Below, piece by piece: positions 8,043-48,079 of a stretch of 64,000 nt of DNA (within the stretch, counting starts at the first letter, position 1; each line of letters starts with the position of its first letter). The stretch spans positions 25,307,851-25,371,850 of the forward strand of contig OX393549.1 in NCBI GenBank assembly GCA_947650365.1, read 5' to 3'. The DNA is from Chamaelirium japonicum (Eukaryota > Streptophyta > Magnoliopsida > Liliales > Melanthiaceae). Below the pieces are notes generated by a model. The model was not told the origin of the DNA and made no database searches. It saw only the letters and a list, made by a program, of their open reading frames with translations. Both the position numbers and the translations under genes were made by a program.

Positions 8043-9497
8043 TACCACTTGAGGCATCTTCATGTACCACTTCCTACATCCATTGCTGATACCACCTGTG
8101 CTGTTTCGGATCTTTGGCATCGCCGATTGGGACATCCTTCAGCTGCACGTCTCCGTACTATCTTTCAGTCCGGAGCACTCGGTGATATCTTCTTTACTCC
8201 ACCATCTCCATGTGTCCGTTGTAGCTTGGCCAAGCATCCAACTCAGCCATTTCCCGTGCATATGTCTATGCCATCTTCTGTGTTTGATTTAGTGCATTCG
8301 GATATCTGGGGACCTGGTCCCGTTGTATCTCTTTCTGGATTATCTTATTATGTTAGTTTCATTGAAGATTTCTCTCGTTTTACTTGGGTGTTTCTCTTAC
8401 GTCGTCGATCTGATGTTTGTCAGGCATATCGTGACTTTACCAGTATGGTTCACACTCAATTTGGTAAACGTATTAAAATTTTTCGCTCCGATGGTGCTCG
8501 CGAGTATCTTTCATCTGAGTTTCGTGACATTCTTTTCTCTCAGGGTACTCTCCCACAGCAGTCATGTCCTTACACGCCTGCACAAAATGGTGTAGCTGAA
8601 AGAAAGCATCGTCACATTCTCGAAACTGCTCGTTCTCTTTTATTCTCTACCTCTGTTCCTCGTCATTTTTGGGCGGAGGTTGTTCTCACCTCAGTCCACT
8701 TAATCAACCGCACTCCCTCTTCTGCTCACTCTGGTCAATCACCCTTTCAGATCCTGTACTCTGTTGTTCCTCACTATCGTGTCTTGCGGACCTTTAGTTG
8801 CACATGTTTCGTTATACTCCCTCCTGGTGAGCGAACGAAACTCACTCCTCGGTCCGCTAGATGTCTTTTCTTGGGGTATAGCTCTGAGCACAAGGGTTGG
8901 CGTTGCTATGACCCCTCTGCTCATCGTATACGTATCTCTCATGACGTGACTTTTTTTGAGGACACTCCCTTCTACTCAGGGGTCTCCATGGATCAGGACT
9001 TATCCTTTCTTCATTCCTCTGAGTCACTCTCTCCTCCAGTCTGTCCCTCCTCCGGGATCTCGATACCTACTCCCTCAACTCACTTATCAGTTCCTCAAGA
9101 TGCTTCTGTTGTTCCTCCCCCACCACTTGAGCTCCCGCGACCACCAGTCACTTCCACTTACACGCGTCGTCCGCATGTCCCAGCCACTCCCTCTCCTCCT
9201 CCAGACTCTCCTGCAGTCCTACCCTCGATGCCAGTCTCGTCTAGCCCTGATGATGGATCTTCTGCTCCTACCTTCTCACAGCGCTACTCTGAGCGTGACG
9301 GACATCCGCCAGATCGCTACGGTTTCTCCCATACTACCTCCTACTCTTCTACTTTTCAGGACTTTCTTGCAGCTATTCATTCCCTTCAGGAGCCCCAGAG
9401 TTACCGTGAGGCAATCCAGGCACCCCATTGGCAGCAGGCTATGTCCGAGGAGCTGCAGGCTCTTCAGCAGACTGGCACTTGGGAGCTCGTTCCTTAA
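8043..9497 (+). pseudogene. Copia element B GAG-pre-integrase, integrase and start of reverse transcriptase
   Basis: The integrase inserts element DNA into the genome. An HHCC finger is visible (LWHRRLGHPS ... CVRCSLAKH), then the DDE core: LVHSDIWGPG, IKIFRSDGAREY and TPAQNGVAERKHRHILETAR, so all three acidic residues are present. The tail includes VPRHFWAEVVLTSVHLINRT and LGYSSEHKGWRCYDP, then a Pro/Ser linker and the first reverse transcriptase residues YREAIQAPHWQQAM ... TGTWELVP, ending in TAA at 9495-9497. It is open for 482 codons, the best preserved part of the element. Confidence 0.9.
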
Positions 9498-9504
9498 CAT
9501 CAAC

Positions 9505-10518
9505 GATTATGCTATGTTCACTCGTACATCTCCTCATGGTCGTGAGATCTTGCTTCTCTGCATCGACGACATGATTATCACTGATGATGATACTGCTACC
9601 ATTGATTCTCTGAAGCAACATCTACAGCAGCAAATTGAGATGAAAGACCTTTGCCACCTTTGCTACGTTTTTGGCCTTGAGGTCGCTTCCTCTCCTCGAG
9701 GATACCTAGTCTCACAACAGAAATTTGCTTCTGATATACTGAGTCGTGTAGGACTCACCGACTCTCGGACCGTGGACACACCAATGAAGCTTAATCGAAG
9801 CTTCATCCTACTGATGGCGAATGGCGAGTCACTCTCGGATCCCACTCGCTATCGCCAGCTTGTTGGTGCTCTTATCTATATGGCAATCACTCGCCCAGAT
9901 ATTGTGCATTCCGTCCTAGTTCTTAGTTAGTTTGCCAGTTCTCCTCGCTCAACTCACTATACCGCACTACTGAGGGTTTTTCACTATCTTCGAGGCACGG
10001 TGACTCGCTCCTTGTTGTTTTCGTCATCTTCCTCCTTGATGCTTCGCGCCTTTTTCAATACAGATTGCAGACTAAGTGGGAGATCCCACTGATCGACGAT
10101 CCACCACTAGCTTCTGTATTTTCCAAGATGATTCGTTCATCTCATGGAAAAGTAAGAAGTAGGAGATGTCTCGCTCTCTAGTACCGAGGCCAAGTATCAT
10201 GCTATGGCACGCACTTTGTGTGAGGTCGTCTGGCCGCGTCGTCAACTCGATATGGGTGTTCAGATGACCTCTTCGACTCCCCTCCACTGTGACAACCAGA
10301 GCGCTATTCAGATTGGTAACAATCCGGTATTTCACAAGCGCAAGAAATATATTGAGCTGGATTGTCACTATATTTGGCATTGCTACAAGAATGACATGCT
10401 CTCGCTTCCACATGTGTCTTCGACAGAGCAACTTGCAAACTTCTTCCCACTATTTCGCGATTTCGATATCTCCTTAGCAGACTCTTGGTGTATGATCCAT
10501 CTTGAGTCTGACGAGAGG
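9505..10518 (+). pseudogene. Copia element A: reverse transcriptase C-half and RNase H
   Basis: The reading resumes with DYAMFTRTSPHGREILLLCI, where CIDDM replaces the usual YVDDM catalytic box (both Asp retained). Then GLEVASSPRGYLVSQQKFAS and TPMKLN, and TRYRQLVGALIYMAITRPDI. The RNase H block is broken by stops, but SSTEAKYHAMARTLCEVVW and LHCDNQSAIQIGNNPVFHKR are clear. This continues the reverse transcriptase that ends at 5556. Confidence 0.8.
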
Positions 10519-15710: not shown

Positions 15711-15803
15711 CTGCCCTCAAACACAACAACAAGGATTTTGATACCTTAGCAAATCCCCACTTGACGATAAAGCAGAACCACGACAATCGATTTGAGGCCC
15801 TAC

Positions 15804-16493
15804 CTTCAGTTGCTTCTTCACATGCTCCTCCTTCCTACCGTACGCCTCGGCGAGTGCCTTGATGAGGGAGGCATCCCCGATCCCGAGCTCAATGCCCTCA
15901 TGCGGCGGGGCGATCCTGTTCGCGGACAGGTAGACCGTGGCGAGGAGATCTCCGGGTGTGGTGGTGATCACGGTGCGGAAGACGTTACAGAGGATGTCGG
16001 TGATGGCGATCCGTCCCGACTCATTGGAGATTAGCTCGAGAGCGCGGGAGAGGAACAGGAACGGGACCGGCTCGCCGTCCTTCCAGGAGGCAGCGGCCTT
16101 GGGGGTGAAATCGAACCCCTTCTTTCTCAGCTCGAGGGAAGGGTCGCTCTTTTCCTCCGGAGGTGGCTTGGGGGGTTCGTCGGTGGCCGCTTGGGTTTCT
16201 AGGGTTTTGGGCTTCTTGGAAGGGGGAGGGGGGTCCTGGGCCAGGGGCGGTTGGGAGGAGGTGGTCTTCTTGGCCTTCTTCGCGGCGGACGCGCGGGCGG
16301 CGCCCATGAGGACGTCGGCGACGGTGCGGCCGGAGGACATGGTTCCGCGGCGGCGGGAGGAGGAGAGGCGGAGGAGGACGAGGAAGGGGTGGGGGTTGTT
16401 AGATCTGGAGAAGGGGAGAGAAGGCGCAATGGGAGGAGGGGGAAGAGGAGAGCATCGGAGTGATAGCAGGGCTTGTGCTCTCATCAACAACAT
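15804..16493 (-). CDS. LIG1: DNA ligase 1 exon 1: presequence, N-terminal tail, start of DNA-binding domain
   Basis: The exon encodes 230 codons. Residues 1-51 (MLLMRAQALLSLR...) are rich in Arg, Ser, Leu and Pro and lack acidic residues, typical of a mitochondrial presequence. A second in-frame ATG at 16338-16340 (residue 52, MSSGRTVADVLM) matches the position of the internal nuclear start of Arabidopsis LIG1. A Lys/Pro-rich disordered tail follows (AKKAKKTTSSQPP, SKKPKTLE), then the DNA-binding domain with WKDGEPVPFLFL, ESGRIAITDILCNVFRTVI and LSANRIAPPHEGIELGIG. The exon ends at VKKQLK with donor GT at 15802-15803. A further ATG at residue 4 (16482-16484) could also serve. The start at 16493 is chosen because it begins the presequence; either start may be used in vivo. 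Confidence 0.93.
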
Positions 16494-34063: not shown

Positions 34064-34787
34064 CTAGTGCATGTCCGTGCATGTCGGCACTGCAGCGGGC
34101 CGTCTTCGGCGGCAACACACTAGTCGACAATGCAGTGGGCTGCCTTTGGCGGCAAGACACCCCCCGGGCATCACCACCATCTCTCTTTTCCCTTCCATTT
34201 TTCTCTCTCTAAATCTCTCATCAATCTCTTTCAATCGGACTCCATCTACCCGAACCAAATCACGGCCGTCTATTTTGCCCAACCAAAATCCCAATGTGAA
34301 AACCCATGCATCTATGCACGTCCCCTCTTTCCTGATCTCTCTCTCTCATTGTCCTCTCTTTAGATCTTATCACAGTCGTTCCTCTCCTTTGCGATTAGCT
34401 CCTACCCGACCTCCCCCTTTATCTCTATACATTTCTTTCTCTTTCCTTACCTGCTTGCATCGCAGTCATCCAGGCATCCAGTCCTCTCAAATTACCCCAA
34501 CTCGTGCGACCCTCTCTCTCATCCGATTATCTTTCCTCTCTCTCTCCTACCTGATCACAATACCCACGTCCGAGTCATCCCTTCTCCCTCTCATCCGAAC
34601 CCCCTCCGGATCACTCTCTCTCTCTCTCTCTAAATCTCTTTTATCTCTCCTAACATATTTGCAGCCAACCTCCCCCTCTTTTCCGAATCTTTCTCTAACC
34701 TCCCACAATTCTCCCTTTCTTTCCTATTCTATCTATCCCCCCACCGATCGTTGTCTCTCTCTCTCCCCATGCAATCACAGTCGTCCC

Positions 34788-34788
<1 letters not shown>

Positions 34789-34853
<65 letters not shown>
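34789..34853 (+). repeat. (TC)n microsatellite inside the Helitron
   Basis: An uninterrupted dinucleotide tract. Confidence 0.95.
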
Positions 34854-34855
<2 letters not shown>

Positions 34856-35080
34856 CTCCGCACCTCCTTCGAACCCTACAAACCTGTCGATCCTCCCCCC
34901 TCCCTCTAAATCTCTCTCTTTCCTTATCTCTCTCTTTCTCTTTCCTATTCCGGACCAATCACAACCGTCCGTGTACTCCCTCCTGAATATCTCTTTCTCC
35001 TCCTACTTTTCCTGCGATCCGAGCATCCCTCGCGATCACCTCTCTTTCTTATTCTTTATCTATGAAGAGAGAGATTCTAT

Positions 35081-35121
<41 letters not shown>

Positions 35122-35124
35122 GTG

Positions 35125-35178
<54 letters not shown>
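35081..35178 (+). repeat. Two (GA)n tracts inside the Helitron
   Basis: GA runs at about 35083-35119 and 35130-35178 separated by TCGTGGGAA. A T-run (19 T) follows at 35221-35239. Confidence 0.95.
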
Positions 35179-35181
<3 letters not shown>

Positions 35182-35329
35182 GGCATGCGTGAGAGAGAGC
35201 GCCATAATGGTAGTGACAACTTTTTTTTTTTTTTTTTTATCTAGTCAGCTTGCTCCGTTTTGTCTTAGTCAGCTTTTTTGTTTCGTTTTGTCTAGTCAAT
35301 ATATAGACCGCCATCCCTTTTTATATAGA

Positions 35330-41151: not shown

Positions 41152-41159
41152 CACTACAA

Positions 41160-41575
41160 AAAAAATAGTTTTTACCGACGGACAATATCCGTCGGTAAAG
41201 TTAGTTTTTCGTCGGTAAAGATTTATCGCGACGGAAGTCATTTCCGTCGCTAGTCTGTCGGAAAAAAAGGCGTCGGGAAAAATCGGTGACGGACAAAAAA
41301 TATCCGTCGATATTAATAATTAATACCGACGGATATTTTGTGTCCGTCGGTAATATACAAATATTTAATTATAAATATAAAAGATTTTTGTCGACGGAAT
41401 ATTACCGTCCGTCGGTAATATATAAGATTTTTGCCGACGAAATATTACTCTCCGTCGGCAATATATAAGGTTATTACCGACGGACGTTATAAATTCCGTC
41501 GCCAATATACAAATTATTTTAAAAAATAAAATAGCTTATTACCGATGGAAGTGATAAATTTCGTCGGCAAAAAAA
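41160..41575. repeat. Left subterminal array of the CACTA element
   Basis: At least eight TACCGACGGA/CCGTCGGTAA-type words in direct and inverted order, spaced 20-50 bp apart and separated by AT-rich filler. Confidence 0.9.
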
Positions 41576-41999
41576 CATGATTTTTTTAAAAAAAATTACT
41601 TAAATAATATTTTTTAATTCCTGTTATTTATAACAATACCATAATATATTCAAATATTACGATAATCGACTAAATCAACTATTACCACAATTTATCAAAT
41701 AATACCACAATTTATCAAATAATACCACAATATATTCAAATATTACCATAATTGATTAAATCAACTATTACAGCAATTTATCAAATATTACCACAATACC
41801 AGACAATTATAGACAAGACCAAAAATTGACCACATATTTATTACAAAATTATTTTTACATAATCCAAAACTGAGGGAGGCTGCGTGCCCTAGCTCAACCA
41901 CCCCACGTCGCCCGGCACCAATGTTGGTGCTCTCATCCCCTGACGCTGCACATCCTGCAATTAACATGTATTTGTTAAAAAAATAGTTTATATCTATAG

Positions 42000-44880
42000 T
42001 TGAAAGTCTAAGCGTTGAAAAATCAAAAGTTAGTGTGTTTCGGATTTGAAATTGGTTTGGATTCGATCGGATCGTCATCGGATCGGCATCCGATAATTCA
42101 TACTTAGAATTATTTTGTATTTCAGACTTGCGAGCGAGTTCTAATTGGATATTTTAACAATTTACGCTCCGATTGATCCATTTAGAGTCTAAGCGTTAAA
42201 AAATCATAAGTTAGCGTGTTTCGGATTTGAAATTGGTTTGGATTCGATTAAATCGTCATTCGATAATTGATAATTGGAATTATTTTTGTATTTCGGACTT
42301 GCGAGCGAGTTCTAATTGGATATTTTAATAATTTACACTCCAATTGACCGATTTAGAGTCTAAGCGTTGAAAAATCATAAGTTAGCGTGTTTCAGATTTA
42401 AAATAGGTTTGGATTCAATCGGATCGTCATCGGATCGGCATCCGATAATTCGTACTTTGAATTTTTTCATATTTCGGACATACGAGCGAGTTCTAATTGG
42501 ATATTTTAACAATTTACGCTCCGATTGACCTATTTAGAGTCTAAGCGTTGAAAAATTATAAGTTTGTTTGTTTCGGATTTAAAATAGGTTTGGATTCGAT
42601 CGAATCGTCATCCGATAATTCATACTTGGAATTTTTCCATATTTCGGACTTGCGAGCGAGTTCTAATTGGATATTTTAATAATTTCGAACTTGCAATAGG
42701 TTTGGATTCGATCGGATCGGCATCCGATAATTCGTACTTGGAATTTTTCCGTATTTCAAACTTGCAAGCGAGTTCTAATTGGATATTTTAACAATTCACA
42801 CTCCGATTGACCCATTTAGAGTCTAAGCGTTGAAAAATCATAAGTTAGTGTGTTTCGGATTTGAAATAGGTTTGGATTCGATCGAATCGTCATCCGATAA
42901 TTCATACTTGGAATTTTTCCATATTTCGAACTTGCGAGCGAGTTCTAATTGGATATTTTAATAATTTATACTCTGATTGACCGATTTAGAGTCTAAGCGT
43001 TAAAAAATCATAAGTTAGCATGTCTCGGATTTGAAATAGGTTTGGATTCGATCGGATCGGACAATTCGTACTTGGAATTCTTCTGTATTTCGGACTTGCG
43101 AGCGAGTTCTAATTGGATATTTTAACAATTTACGCTCTAATTGGCCGATTTAGAATCTAAGCATTGAAAACTCATAAGTTAGCGTGTTTTGGATTTGAAT
43201 AGGTTTGGATTTGATCGGATCATCATCGGATCGGTATCCGATAATTCGTACTTAGAATTTCTCCGTATTTTGAACTTGCGAGCGAGTTCTAATTGGATAT
43301 TTTAACAATTTACACTCTGATTGACCCATTTAGAGTCTAAGCGTTGAAAAATCATAAGTTAGTGTGTTTTGATTTGAAATAGGTTTGGATTCGATCGGAT
43401 CGTCATCAGATCGGCATCCGATAATTCGTACTTGGAACTTTTCTGTATTTCGGACTTGCGAGCGAGTTCTAATTGGATATTTTAACAATTTACGCTCCGA
43501 TTGACCGATTTAGATACTAAGCATTGAAAAATCATAAGATAGTGTGTTTTGGATTTGAAATAGGTTTGGATTCGATCGGATTGGCATCCGATAATTCGTA
43601 CTTTGAATTTTTCTGTATTTCGGACGTGCGAGCGAGTTCTAATTGGATATTTTAATAATTTACACTCCGATTGATCGATTGAGAGTCTAAGCATAGAAAA
43701 TCATAAGTTAGCGTGTTTCGTATTTGAAATAGGTTTGGATTCGATCGGATCATCATCGGATCGGTATCCGATAATTCGTACTTGGAATTTTTTGTATTTC
43801 GGACTTGTGAGCGAGTTCTAATTGGATATTTTAATAATTTACGCTCCGATTGACCCATTTAGAGTCTAAGCGTTGAAAAATCATAAGTGAGCGTATTTCG
43901 GATTTGAAATAGGTTTGGATTCGATCGGATCGTTATCGGATCCGCATCCGATAATTCGTACTTGGAATTTTTCTGTATTTCGGACTTGCGAGCGAGTTCT
44001 AATTGGATATTTTAACAATTTACGCTCCGATTGACCGATTTTGAGTCTACGCATTGAAAAATCATAAGTTAGCGTGTTTCGAATTTGAAATAGGTTTGGA
44101 TTCGATCGGATCGGCATCCGATAATTTGTACTTTGAATTTTTTCATATTTCAGACTTGCGAGCGAGTTCTAATTGGATATTTTTACAATTTACGCTCTGA
44201 TTGACCGATTTAGAGTCTAAGCGTTGAAAAATCATAAGTTAGCATGTTTCGGATTTGAAATAGGTTTGGATTTGATCGGATCATCGTCGGATCGGTATCC
44301 GATAATCCGAACTTGGAATTTTTTTCATATTTCGGACTTGCGAGCGAGTTCTAATTGGATATTTTAATAATTTACGCTTCGATTGACCCATTTAGCGTCT
44401 AAGCGTTGAAAAATCATAAGTTAGTGTGTTTCAGATTTGAAATAGGTTTGTATTCGATCGGATCGTTATCGGATCAGTATCCGATAATTCGAACTTCGAA
44501 TTTTTTCGTATTTTGGACTTGCGAGCGAGTTCTAATTAGATATTTTAACAATTTACACTCCGATTGACCGATTTAGATTCTAAGCGTTGAAAAATCATAA
44601 GTTAGCGTGTTTCGGATTTGAAATAGGTTTGGATTCGATCGGATCATCATTGGATCGATATCCAATAATCCGAACTTGGAATTTTTTTCGTATTTCAGAC
44701 TTGCGAGCGAGTTCTAATTGGATATTTTAACAATTTACGCTCCGATTGACCGATTGGATATTTTTTCGTATTTCGGACTTATGAGCGAGTTCTAATTGGA
44801 TATTTTAACAATTTAAACTCCGATTGACAAATTTAGAGTCTACGCGTTGAAAAATCATAAGTTAGCGTCTACGCGTTGAA
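42000..44880 (+). repeat. Seventeen-copy minisatellite, two unit lengths
   Basis: The core GAGCGAGTTCTAATTGGAT recurs at 42132, 42303, 42484, 42654, 42766 (variant), 42936, 43100, 43280, 43460, 43630, 43809, 43990, 44160, 44342, 44523, 44705 and 44783. Spacings cluster at 164-171 and 179-182 bp. The longer class carries an extra ATCGTCATCGG-like piece beside GATCGGCATCCGATAATTCG. A short 112-bp unit and a terminal 78-bp piece reflect deletions. Each unit includes GTCTAAGCGTTGAAAAATCA and GGTTTGGATTCGATCGGATC. Confidence 0.93.
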
Positions 44881-45117
44881 AAATCATATAGAGAATATTG
44901 TAGAGAGTGATTGTCACAAAACAATACTCTCTATGGCATTCTCCCTATAATAAATTCTCTACATAACATTGTCCCTATAACATTCTCTACTATATTCTGA
45001 ATAATATTTCCTCTCTACTATATTTTCTACAATATATTCTCTATATAATGATCTCTACTACATTCTTACTGCATATATACACTCTACACTCTCCATTACA
45101 TCTTTCTACTATATTTT
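44881..45117. repeat. AT-rich repeat of CTCTACTATATT-like words
   Basis: Variants of ATTCTCTACAATATATTCTC and CTCCCTATAATAAATTCTC recur about every 20-30 bp. Lies directly downstream (minus sense) of the last Argonaute exon. Confidence 0.6.
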
Positions 45118-45119
45118 AC

Positions 45120-45233
45120 CTGTATGCCAGCATAACTGCAGAGATAGAAATCGAACTCCGTTGGGTGGCATATTGTTGTGTCCACTACAAATGTCACATA
45201 AGGGAGATATCCCTCTTCCAACGAGGCACACAC
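45120..45233 (-). pseudogene. Captured Argonaute PIWI fragment, exon c
   Basis: The exon has 38 open codons: [20 protein letters not shown] and [18 protein letters not shown]. This matches the PIWI domain of the plant AGO1/AGO10 group ([36 protein letters not shown]). About 30 residues that normally lie between VTFVV and VVD (the QKRHHTRLF region) are missing in frame. Acceptor AG at 45234-45235 and donor GT at 45118-45119 are intact. The next expected exon, with the catalytic His in AHYHVLWDEN, was not found. Confidence 0.9.
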
Positions 45234-45360
45234 CTAGCATGATTAAAAAACAAAATTCTATCATTTAAAAGAAAAACAGAGGCTACATCATTACCATGAG
45301 AGAGAGAGAGAGAGACCATTTGCTTGCTTACTAGATATAAGCAATGAAACAAATGCTTAC

Positions 45361-45424
45361 CTTTCGAATCGCATCCATTTCATAGAGCAGGACATGATTG
45401 AATTGCCCTTCTCTAACACCGTCC
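45361..45424 (-). pseudogene. Captured Argonaute PIWI fragment, exon b
   Basis: After completing the Arg codon, the exon reads DGVREGQFNHVLLYEMDAIR and K. The plant Argonaute consensus is DGVSEGQF-QVLLYE-DAIRK; the first residue is the second Asp of the PIWI slicer triad, which is retained. Acceptor AG at 45425-45426, donor GT at 45359-45360, phases fit exons a and c. Confidence 0.93.
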
Positions 45425-45515
45425 CTGTGATATGTAGACACATGTTAAGAGAAGCTTCCACATGGGAGGCATAATCACAATAGTGAGAAAAAAAAAATAG
45501 TAAGCAATGTTCCAC

Positions 45516-45578
45516 CTGTAGAATATGATTCTATGAGGCCTTTGCCGCATCGATCGATAGAAGGCGACTAAAAGCTCT
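45516..45578 (-). pseudogene. Captured Argonaute PIWI fragment, exon a
   Basis: The frame reads ELLVAFYRSMRQRPHRIIFY plus two bases of Arg; the plant Argonaute consensus is RELL-AF-RST-HKP-RIIFYR. Acceptor AG at 45579-45580 and donor GT at 45514-45515. The phase-2 join to exon b restores FYRDGV exactly as in host AGO genes. Upstream PIWI sequence is absent: within 80 bp the transposase fragment begins. Confidence 0.92.
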
Positions 45579-45651
45579 CTGGGTAACAATCAAAGTAATA
45601 GCTATAAATAACTTGGTTCATAATCTTTAGTTAGAGCATGTTTTAGTTACA

Positions 45652-45855
45652 ACATATCGGATCAGCAGTCTTCGATGACATAAACAACCTCTGAAGCCTG
45701 TCCCTAAGCGGGAAGTATAGGAGAACCTTTGCAGATACATTTTTCTTCCTTCGATTGGTACTAGACTCGGCATCCGTGCCTATGCCACCTTGCAAATCAT
45801 GTATCACACCCTGCATGTCATCGCCATCGTCCGTATTAATATTATCATCATCGCC
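45652..45855 (-). pseudogene. CACTA TNP2-type transposase fragment
   Basis: The fragment has 68 open codons, with DDGDDMQGVIHDLQGG and RRKKNVSAKVLLYFPLRDRL then QRLFMSSKTA. The block K-(I/V)-AKVL-YFPL--RLQRLFMSSKTA is a hallmark of plant En/Spm TNP2 transposases. The stretch that normally separates the two motifs (including the zinc-binding CPVC region) is missing. Same strand as the Argonaute exons and directly upstream of them. Confidence 0.85.
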
Positions 45856-45929
45856 CTAAACAAGCATATTCGCGAGCCCAAACGAGTCGAGCTTTGGTCT
45901 TCTTAAGCTTGGCTCGTTTATTAAACATA

Positions 45930-46172
45930 ACCCTAACCTAAATCTAACCCTAACCCTAATCCTAAACCTAAACCTAAACTCTAAACCCTAACCTAAATGT
46001 AAACCATAAACCTAACCCTAATCCAAAACTTAAACCCTAAACCTAACCCTAATCCAAAACTTAAACCCTAAACCTAACCTCAACCCTAAACCTAACCTAA
46101 ACCCCACCCTAAACCCTAACATAAACCCTAAACCTAAACTAAACCCATGCTAAACCCTAAACCTTAAACCCT
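45930..46172 (+). repeat. Telomere-like (CCCTAAA-type) block 1
   Basis: Degenerate CCCTAAA, CCTAAAC and AACCCTAA units with no non-telomeric insertion over about 240 bp. It is followed by AACAAATATATAGACTTTCT, which also follows block 2. Confidence 0.9.
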
Positions 46173-46254
46173 AACAAATATATAGACTTTCTGAAAATGA
46201 ATGTATACCCTTTCTAATATAGACTTTCTGAAGACGAATATACTCTTTCTAAGT

Positions 46255-46450
46255 ATTTGAAAATCATAAGTTTTCGAGTTTCACATTTTCAAGTTGGTTT
46301 GGATTCGATCGGATCGTCATCGGATCACATTCGATAATTCGTACTCATATGGTTTTTTGTATTTCCGACTTACGAATGAGTATTTAGTAGATATTTAAGA
46401 TTTTGTTATCGGATTGACTAATTTAGAGACTAAGTATTTACTGAACTTGT
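46255..46450 (+). repeat. Diverged minisatellite unit between the telomere-like blocks
   Basis: AAAATCATAAGTTTTCGAGTT, GGTTTGGATTCGATCGGATC and TTCCGACTTACGAATGAG follow the same order as in the 42-45 kb array, so one old unit lies between the two telomere-like blocks. Confidence 0.7.
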
Positions 46451-46554
46451 TCGTGAGCTACTAATTTTAAAAACTATATTTTCCCCCATGCAATTCAGTT
46501 TTAATCAGATAAAAAGGATCAAATAAGGAAATTAAGTAGTTGACAAAAGGGTAT

Positions 46555-47010
46555 AAACCCTTACCTAAACCTAATATAAACCCTTACCTAAACCTAAACC
46601 TAAACCATAAACCTAACTCTAAACCTAAACCCTAAACCTAAACACTAAACCTAACCCTAACCCTAATCCTAAACCTAAACCCTAAACCTAACCCTAACCC
46701 TAATCCTAAACCTAAACCCTAAACATAACCCTAACCTAAACCTAACCCTAACCCTAATCCTAAACCTAAACCTAAACTCTAAACCCTAACCTAAACCTAA
46801 ACCATAAACCTAAACTTAATCCAAAACTTAAACCCTAAACCTAACCCTAATCCAAAACTTAAACCCTAAACCTAACCTCAACCCTAAACCTAACCCTAAT
46901 CCAAAACTTAAACCCTAAACCTAACCTCAACCCTAAACCTAAACCCTAACATAAACCCTAAACCTAACCTAAACCCCATGCTAAACCCTAAACCTTAAAC
47001 CCTAACAAAT
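46555..47010 (+). repeat. Telomere-like (CCCTAAA-type) block 2
   Basis: A second, longer run of CCTAAACCCTAAACCTAAC variants, containing internal duplications of ATCCAAAACTTAAACCC units. It ends with AACAAATATATACACTTTCT as block 1 does. Confidence 0.9.
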
Positions 47011-47259
47011 ATATACACTTTCTGAAAATGAATGTATACTCTTTCTAATATACACTTTCAGACGAATATATACTCATTCTAAAGACGAATATATACTTGT
47101 AGGGACCTTAGTTAATATCGCAAATTATGGTGTCTAAAAACTACATTTTGCTCCCATTCAATTCAATTTTGATAAGATAAAAATTACCAAATGAGGGAAT
47201 TAAGTAGATGACAAAAGGGGTATTGTGTTAACATTTCAAACTTTAGAATGCGATTTGGA

Positions 47260-47560
47260 ACAAAATAAACTAAGGGGGAGAGGGAGGAGGAGGAGGAGCT
47301 CACTGGAGATAGAGAGGGAGGCCTCGAGGAGGAGGAGGAGCAGTGGCTCCGGCGGAGGGGACGTCGAGCAGCGTCGCCGGTCGGTGGCGCGCGGAAGGGG
47401 AGGGGAGGGGTGACCGGAGGCACGAGAGAGAGGAGGGGTGGCCGGAGGCGCAAGGGAGGAGAGGGGTGGCCGGCCGGAGGCACGTGAGGGAGGGGAGGAA
47501 GGCCGGGGAGGGGGGGGGGAATTAGATCGAGAGAGAGGGGGGGGGGGGGGGGGGGGTATT
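47260..47560 (+). repeat. GGAGG-rich stretch with poly(G)
   Basis: GA/GGAGG-rich sequence with three GGGGTGGCCGG-type repeats (about 47405-47480) and 20 consecutive G at 47537-47556. It could be a captured GC-rich 5' region of some gene, but no protein is recognisable. Confidence 0.6.
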
Positions 47561-47599
47561 TAGATCGAAACAGAAAGGGGGATCGGGGAGTTATAAAAT

Positions 47600-48060
47600 C
47601 GCAGGGTTTTTACCGACGGACAATATATATTCCGTCGGTAAAAAGTAGTTTTATACCGACAATTACTCTTTTTCTGTCGGTAATTAAAATGCTAAAAAAA
47701 ATTAAAATTTATGTATTAATATTACCGACAGAATAAACCTTTACCGTCGGTAATATTAGTTATACCGACGGATATATAGTTACCGTCGGTAAAAATAAAC
47801 AAAAAAAATTTAGCAAAATATAAAATATATTATTAGCGACGGACTTTTATATTACTGTCGGTAATAACATATATTACCGACGGACGTAATATTTTTCATC
47901 GGTAAAGGTATATTACCGACGGATAATATATAACTGTCGGTAATAAATATGAAAAAAAAAATTAAAAAAATCAAAGTATTATTACCGACGGAAAATATTA
48001 TTACCGTCGGTAAAATATATATTATTACCGACGGTAATAGAAATTTCCGTCGGTAAAAAA
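47600..48060. repeat. Right subterminal array of the CACTA element
   Basis: About a dozen TTACCGACGGA/TCCGTCGGTAA words in both orientations, mirroring the left end. Confidence 0.9.
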
Positions 48061-48079
48061 CCTATTTCTTGTAGTGCCT

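What the first reader, a model, noticed from the sequence alone, without database searches (positions are those of the whole stretch)
45120..45855. Argonaute PIWI-domain exons captured inside a CACTA transposon
Three consecutive exons with intact GT-AG splice sites and matching phases encode about 79 residues of a plant AGO1/AGO10-type PIWI domain, including the second slicer aspartate (FYRDGV) and [13 protein letters not shown]. They lie inside a CACTA element, on the same strand as and within 80 bp of a TNP2 transposase fragment. No stop codon breaks the exons, and about 30 residues (the QKRHHTRLF region) are missing in frame, so this is not simply a host gene in place. An Argonaute fragment on a mobile element could produce a chimeric transposase-PIWI transcript, or small RNAs acting on host AGO mRNA. 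Gene capture by CACTA elements is known; capture of Argonaute with this arrangement is, as far as I know, not commonly described. Function is inference.
Basis: partly seen in the sequence, partly recalled or inferred. Interest (0 to 1): 0.95.

Follow-up and report, generated by a model that had tools for sequence, protein, structure and literature searches.

The report
Argonaute gene piece multiplied by transposon
In this plant genome a CACTA "jumping gene" picked up a 1-kilobase piece of the plant's germline-type Argonaute gene MEL1, lost part of it, and spread the remaining exon to about 240 places, most likely as a passenger but possibly as a source of small RNAs against the gene it came from.

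Summary
Window 41152-48076 is a CACTA element (TIRs, TSD CCT). Inside it, 44885-45664 (minus strand) is a genomic piece, introns included, of a host Argonaute gene on C2 that continues on both sides there. The donor is MEL1/AGO5-type, not AGO1/AGO10. The missing 32 residues are a 177-bp in-frame deletion made after capture and shared by 18 of the 30 copies examined. Genome-wide the deletion junction occurs at 203 places and the exon's 5' half at 241 (donor included); reversed controls 0. The last exon also sits in a high-copy sister subfamily with TNP2 and a second ORF.

A fusion protein is not supported: TNP2 and AGO frames disagree, and the copies show no amino-acid constraint. Best reading: neutral transduplication. 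siRNA action on MEL1 mRNA stays open: copies share perfect 21-mers with donor exons in sense, but the window piece forms no unusual hairpin, and on C1 0 of 19 copies with full-frame TNP2 had a listed exact exon match against 18 of 53 others. No RNA data were available.

The parts
41152..48076 (-). Complete CACTA element, 6925 bp, TIR CACTACAAGAAATAG / CACTACAAAAAAAATAG, TSD CCT; oriented by its TNP2 fragment
   Evidence: a second copy with both TIRs and TSD ACA in L042 2147-9117
47719..48058 (.). Subterminal repeats (ACCGACGG / CCGTCGGT units), 5' side of the element
41374..41484 (.). Subterminal repeats, 3' side
42077..44755 (.). Arrays of a ~170-180 bp repeat, shared with the sister subfamily (L044-L046)
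45661..45855 (-). TNP2 remnant: two pieces of the transposase N-terminal half fused by an internal deletion, ending before Transposase_21
44885..45664 (-). Captured MEL1/AGO5-type genomic block (donor C2:90735386-90736402, 1017 bp) with introns; carries the 177-bp deletion of the deletion-type copies and a further ~79-bp intron loss of its own
45516..45578 (-). Captured exon 1 (ELLVAFYRSMRQRPHRIIFYR)
45361..45424 (-). Captured exon 2 (DGV...DAIRK; with exon 1 it holds the FYRDGV aspartate)
45120..45233 (-). Captured exon 3: two donor exons fused by the in-frame deletion (VCASLEEGY...VTFVV | [21 protein letters not shown])
   Evidence: whole-genome counts

Best explanation
A CACTA element that had lost most of its TNP2 carries one 1017-bp genomic piece of the host MEL1/AGO5-type Argonaute gene (transduplication, Pack-CACTA-like). 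The piece travelled as a passenger, mobilised by TNP2 supplied in trans from intact relatives. A slippage-type deletion (177 bp, between TGTAGTGG and TGTCGTGG) fused the last two captured exons in frame. The deleted form multiplied, and part of it (last exon plus adjoining intron) came into the sister CACTA subfamily, just downstream of its second ORF, where most of the present copies seem to lie. The fragment has no protein function; its open frame is left over from the donor and from its young age. Shown by sequence: capture, donor, deletion, copy counts, presence in the sister subfamily, lack of protein constraint. Inferred: order of TNP2 loss and capture, trans-mobilisation, slippage, direction of transfer, neutrality at RNA level.
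For: TIR and TSD in two copies. Donor block colinear with a gene whose exons continue on both sides. Of the 30 copies (window included), 24 match the donor block from position 1 or 3 to 1017 and the other 6 start at 1 and end earlier: one capture. 18 of 30 have the same deletion. Genome counts 203, 241, 14 and 1352 with reversed controls 0. TNP2 frames of 756-760 aa in 30 of 67 C1 places. Of 27 C1 places with an exact exon match, 18 lie next to an exact second-ORF tail. Deletion-lineage majority sequence against donor: 4 nonsynonymous and 2 synonymous changes, both synonymous ones shared with the undeleted group; exon divergence within groups not below intron divergence, 0.0229 against 0.0153 and 0.0769 against 0.0614. 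0 of 19 TNP2-intact C1 copies with a listed exon match, 18 of 53 others.
Against: Neutrality at RNA level is untested. Splice sites are kept in most copies, and 16 of 18 deletion-type copies have no stop in the PIWI frame, though these copies are young and 7 of the 12 others do have stops. The deletion junction is about 15 times as frequent as the undeleted exon (203 places at up to 2 mismatches against 13 transposon places at up to 3), which founder effects can explain but do not prove.
Confidence: 0.68

Rival explanations
1. Counter-silencing by small RNA: CACTA transcripts that contain the sense MEL1 exon are made double-stranded and diced, and the siRNAs lower the MEL1/AGO5-type Argonaute mRNA in reproductive cells, helping the transposon there.
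For: A silencing effector is the donor. Of the donor's 317 exonic 21-mers, 77 occur in the window's minus strand (0 in the plus) and up to 43 in second-ORF-type copies; three other host Argonaute genes have 0. About 240 places hold the exon's 5' half. Precedents: CACTA-borne miR820 against OsDRM2 (PMC3459959, abstract and one section read) and TART-A carrying a piece of nxf2 (PMC7785250, abstract).
Against: No RNA data. No inverted copy in the window and no unusual fold of 45100-45660 (z = -1.1, 14 of 100 shuffles as stable). On C1, 0 of 19 second-ORF copies with full-frame TNP2 have a listed exact exon match. In the exon stretches kept by the frequent form the donor shows no change against the undeleted majority sequence, so no sign of escape.
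Confidence: 0.2
2. Epigenetic conflict as a side effect: siRNAs from the captured piece direct methylation or silencing between element and donor gene, harmful or neutral to both, with no benefit to the transposon.
For: Described for maize gene-capturing elements, as summarised in the review PMC13317346 (passages). Sequence identity is sufficient.
Against: No methylation or RNA data. The donor exons that I recognised by eye are open, which shows only that the gene is still under constraint.
Confidence: 0.09
3. A chimeric TNP2-PIWI or second-ORF-PIWI protein is made (first reader's protein reading).
For: Sense orientation, kept splice sites in most copies, no stop in the PIWI frame in 16 of 18 deletion-type copies, the window among them.
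Against: TNP2-to-exon splicing is out of frame and stops after 24 codons; the window copy has lost that 5' splice site. In the one sister-subfamily element read in full, AGO sequence begins about 125 bp past the second ORF's stop codon. No amino-acid constraint. Of the PIWI catalytic residues only the FYRDGV aspartate is in the piece (recalled).
Confidence: 0.03

Closest known systems
Pack-CACTA / Pack-TYPE elements (PMC8903248, passages read; the mechanism paper by Catoni and colleagues seen only as cited in reviews)
   Same: Gene piece between CACTA TIRs with TSD, no usable transposase, multiplied in the genome, donor gene still present
   Different: The piece is also found in a subfamily that carries TNP2, and at about 240 places in all; the donor is an Argonaute. 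No captured Argonaute appeared in the listings that I saw of six literature searches (some listings capped), and PMC8903248 and PMC13317346 hold the word argonaute 0 times
miR820-bearing CACTA of rice against OsDRM2 (PMC3459959)
   Same: CACTA carrying sequence related to a host silencing gene; several copies with identical sequence at that place
   Different: There a miRNA precursor and regulation of the target are shown; here no unusual fold and no RNA evidence
TART-A / nxf2 in Drosophila (PMC7785250)
   Same: A transposon captured a piece of a gene of the small-RNA machinery and could target it
   Different: piRNAs antisense to the gene are reported there; here a DNA transposon with sequence potential only
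VANDAL anti-silencing factors (named in passages of PMC13317346)
   Same: Transposon counter-defence in plants as a category
   Different: Works by an encoded protein; here no protein function is supported

Membership tests
CACTA (En/Spm) superfamily | TIRs starting CACTA and 3-bp target site duplication | tested here: met
   41152/48076 with CCT; L042 copy with ACA
CACTA (En/Spm) superfamily | Subterminal short repeats | tested here: met
CACTA (En/Spm) superfamily | TNP2 (Transposase_21) in the family | tested here: met
   Remnant in the window; relatives with frames up to 760 aa; Pfam Transposase_21 in L078
Pack-CACTA | Host gene piece inside a non-autonomous element, donor elsewhere in the genome | tested here: met
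   Donor C2:90735386-90736402
Pack-CACTA | No transposase match in the element | tested here: inconclusive
   A 195-bp TNP2 remnant is present; under the rule quoted from PMC8903248 (transposase match over 250 bp) it would probably still pass
MEL1/AGO5 clade (donor) | Groups with MEL1 and not AGO1/AGO10 | tested here: met
   Tree of 22 rows, 100/99 for the monocot MEL1 group of 8 rows, AGO1/AGO10 rows apart at 100/100; MEL1 proteins among the best hits
miR820-type counter-silencing element | Hairpin precursor | tested here: not met
   45100-45660 folds no better than shuffles (z = -1.1); no Rfam match in the window; other copies not folded
miR820-type counter-silencing element | Small RNA that acts on the host silencing mRNA | not testable with these tools
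   No RNA data

The most novel reading that the evidence does not exclude
A CACTA family disarmed its host's germline silencing by carrying a sense piece of the MEL1-type Argonaute gene: siRNAs from about 240 copies, matching the MEL1 mRNA perfectly over stretches of roughly 30-50 nt, lower MEL1 in meiocytes and so favoured the spread of the family. TNP2-intact copies without the exon would then be free-riders.
Probability: 0.15. Interest if true: 0.92.

Novelty: new member of a known kind. Interest (0 to 1): 0.58.

Why it matters
Gene capture by plant transposons is common, but capture of an effector of the silencing machinery itself, multiplied to about 240 places with long perfect matches to a donor gene that is still there, makes the question whether captured gene pieces act back on the host's defence directly testable with ordinary small-RNA, degradome and methylation data. 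If it proves inert, it is a clean, datable case of passenger spread with several steps (capture, amplification, deletion, transfer) readable in one genome.

Tried and rejected
Host AGO gene in place: rejected, the exons are flanked by element sequence and the donor lies on C2. Assembly join: rejected, the same arrangement occurs at many loci. AGO1/AGO10 identity: rejected. Fusion protein: rejected on frame and constraint.

Unusual conservation of the exon in the second-ORF subfamily: three copies were nearly identical over the exon against about 1-6% per 150-column stretch elsewhere, and ten copies gave 0 differences in one 100-column stretch against 0.6-5% in the stretches upstream. Those copies had been ranked by similarity over that region, so I drew 20 copies by an upstream region instead. 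Over the seven with the full piece (L044 included) the AGO segment differs by 1.3% and the upstream by 1.8%; four copies with one truncated form show 0 differences in the AGO part. I read this as no clear constraint. In that draw 11 of 20 carry exonic AGO 21-mers, one more only AGO intron by eye, and 8 none. The draw leans to relatives of L044; the whole-genome counts (241 exon places, 1352 second-ORF tails) are the better guide. The second ORF had no Pfam match except weak coiled-coil-type ones below cut-off; I call it TnpA-like only by position.

Naming the plant failed: no close protein to the donor in the database (best 71%); the tree says monocot. A search for proteins like the deleted PIWI peptide gave matches over its whole length at 45-56% and partial ones up to 96% over 29%; none was inspected for the deletion.

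My notebook gives the deletion as 169 bp with a 7-bp repeat and speaks of a Transposase_24-like ORF; the corrected figures are 177 bp and an 8-bp repeat matching in 7 of 8 positions, and Pfam did not support the label.

Full report
Setting. The window is C1:25307851-25371850 of an unnamed plant genome of 1.52 Gb in 3253 contigs. The donor gene found below groups with monocot MEL1 genes, so the plant is probably a monocot; it could not be named.

The element. Inverted CACTA termini stand at 41152 (plus) and 48076 (minus), flanked on both sides by CCT. A second copy on C10 (L042 2147-9117) has both termini and TSD ACA. Subterminal CCGACGG repeats and long arrays of a 170-180 bp unit fill much of the rest. 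The only transposase sequence that I found in it is a remnant at 45661-45855. Its residues 27-65 match open frames of up to 760 aa elsewhere in this genome at 92-100% (best 150 places listed); of the 67 C1 places of that kind in the list, 30 have 756-760 aa. In L078, where the gene is broken by stops, the first open stretch (525 aa) has Pfam Transposase_21 at residues 291-501 and Transpos_assoc. The remnant joins two pieces from upstream of Transposase_21, so the window element should not make a working transposase.

The captured gene. Element sequence 44885-45664 (minus strand) aligns to C2:90735386-90736402 at 93% over 486 bp, 97% over 75 bp and 83% over 233 bp. Around it the C2 locus continues with open exons of an Argonaute gene on both sides (exons recognised by eye), and the element sequence does not match there. 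An 803-aa joined translation has MEL1 proteins among its best hits, about 70% identical. In a tree of 22 rows the donor sits in the monocot MEL1 group (100/99; 8 rows, grass AGO12 included), while two other host genes fall in the AGO1/AGO10 group (100/100). The donor block holds four exons; in the window the last two are fused by a 177-bp deletion (87 exonic bp, an 81-bp intron, 9 exonic bp), which removes 32 residues in frame, between TGTAGTGG and TGTCGTGG.

Copies. A DNA search gave 54 matches at more than 30 places; only the best candidates are scored, so this is a lower bound. I examined the 30 fetched as loci, the window included. 24 of 30 match the donor block from position 1 or 3 to its end at 1017 (21 exactly from 1); the other 6 start at 1 and end between 574 and 988. 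18 have the shared deletion. Of the 12 others, 7 have full exons (L028, L030, L033, L034, L035, L037, L038), 4 have other losses in exon 3 (one also a base in exon 2), and 1 an insertion. Whole-genome pattern counts, reversed-pattern controls 0 in each: deletion junction 203 places (up to 2 mismatches), 5' half of the last exon 241 places including the donor (up to 2), undeleted exon 14 places including the donor (up to 3).

The sister subfamily. Copies on C7, C2 and C1 hold only the last exon with adjoining intron, in a different arrangement. A search with that arrangement scored 40 copies, which match nearly full length at 97-100%. One fetched example (L078) has the broken TNP2, a second ORF without an accepted Pfam match, and AGO sequence beginning about 125 bp after the stop codon of that ORF, all on one strand (an L044 version of the ORF was scanned). 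Its 5' terminus has the TIR of the window element; its 3' terminus was not reached, so its TSD is untested. The tail of the second ORF occurs at 1352 places (up to 3 mismatches). On C1, 72 exact tails are listed; 18 have an exact exon match within 600 bp. TNP2 lies upstream of 29 of the 72 in my list: 19 full-frame, 0 with the exon; 10 broken, 3 with it; of the 43 without a listed TNP2, 15 have it. Full-frame copies against all others: 0 of 19 against 18 of 53, Fisher p = 0.0019. Irrespective of the tail, 6 of the 27 C1 exon places lie 5.6-12.9 kb downstream of a listed TNP2 on the same strand, all six with shortened frames of 312-690 aa (random mean 0.13). Limits: the TNP2 list is the best 150, the exon lists show only exact matches on C1, and truncated pieces are missed.

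Is the protein used? The TNP2 frame reaches the first captured 5' splice site in a phase that reads the next AGO exon out of frame and stops after 24 codons (read on the donor sequence). The site is GT in 28 of 30 copies and AT in two, the window copy among them. The majority sequence of the 12 undeleted copies differs from the donor by 5 synonymous and 0 nonsynonymous changes, as expected if the donor stayed under constraint; the deletion lineage differs by 4 nonsynonymous and 2 synonymous changes, both synonymous ones shared with the undeleted group. Within-group divergence in exons is not lower than in introns (0.0229 and 0.0153; 0.0769 and 0.0614). Stops in the PIWI frame: 2 of 18 deletion-type copies and 7 of 12 others. 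Splice-site changes among the 18: one copy at the exon-2 acceptor and one at the exon-2 donor (counted per site). All. So no protein-level selection is seen.

Age. Undeleted copies differ from the donor by 6.8% in introns, deletion-type by 5.8%; copies differ from their own majority sequence by a mean of 3.8% and 1.1%. With plant rates of 6.5e-9 to 1.3e-8 per site and year (recalled), capture is a few million years old and the deletion-type burst around one million or less; excess C-to-T change (C>T or G>A are 238 of 385 and 93 of 159 changes) would make these too old.

Could small RNAs act on the donor? Of 317 exonic donor 21-mers the window holds 77 on the minus strand and 0 on the plus; the 30 examined copies hold 15 to 115, the 33 second-ORF-type loci 0 to 43; three other host Argonaute genes (L040, L041, and L001, AGO7-like by eye) hold 0. 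So the sequence would allow it. Against it: no unusual fold, no inverted copy in the window, the lack of a listed exon match in full-frame copies, and no RNA data. Rice 21-nt phasiRNAs act in male germ cells, and their accumulation there is described as largely dependent on MEL1 (PMC7562718, abstract and section headings read), which is why the germline is where a test should look.

Literature. Seen: PMC3459959 (abstract, one section), PMC7785250 (abstract), PMC13317346, PMC8616336 and PMC8903248 (passages), PMC7562718 (abstract, headings). Other papers appear only in search listings. No Argonaute piece captured by a plant transposon appeared in the listings; several listings were capped, and the library holds open-licence papers only.

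Verdict. Its donor makes it unusually worth testing; the present evidence favours a passenger.

Noticed in passing
8049-9930: Open frames with integrase- and reverse-transcriptase-like text of a Ty1/copia retrotransposon (by eye, no profile search).
   Followed up: no
15717-16493 (minus): 258-aa ORF that by eye resembles the N-terminal part of plant DNA ligase 1; possibly a real host gene of the window.
   Followed up: no
59666 (plus): A second CACTA terminus of the same family (CACTACAAAAAAAACTATTTTTACCGACGG) without a partner found by the motif search.
   Followed up: no
45922-46170 and 46563-47001: Two long arrays of telomere-like CCTAAA units inside the element, next to a stretch that occurs twice in the element at 86% (element positions 995-1357 and 1825-2155); origin unexplained.
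   Followed up: no
L061, L063, L065, L073, L074, L067: In second-ORF-type copies the AGO piece has several different end points, as if it were cut and exchanged between copies in the repeat arrays.
   Followed up: partly
C5:59906267 and C5:59896182 (minus): A TNP2 remnant with a 233-aa open frame lies 10 kb upstream of an undeleted AGO block that lacks the remnant next to it; perhaps a nested insertion.
   Followed up: no
34071-35192: ORF of 373 aa rich in CT/GA repeat sequence; no gene implied.
   Followed up: no
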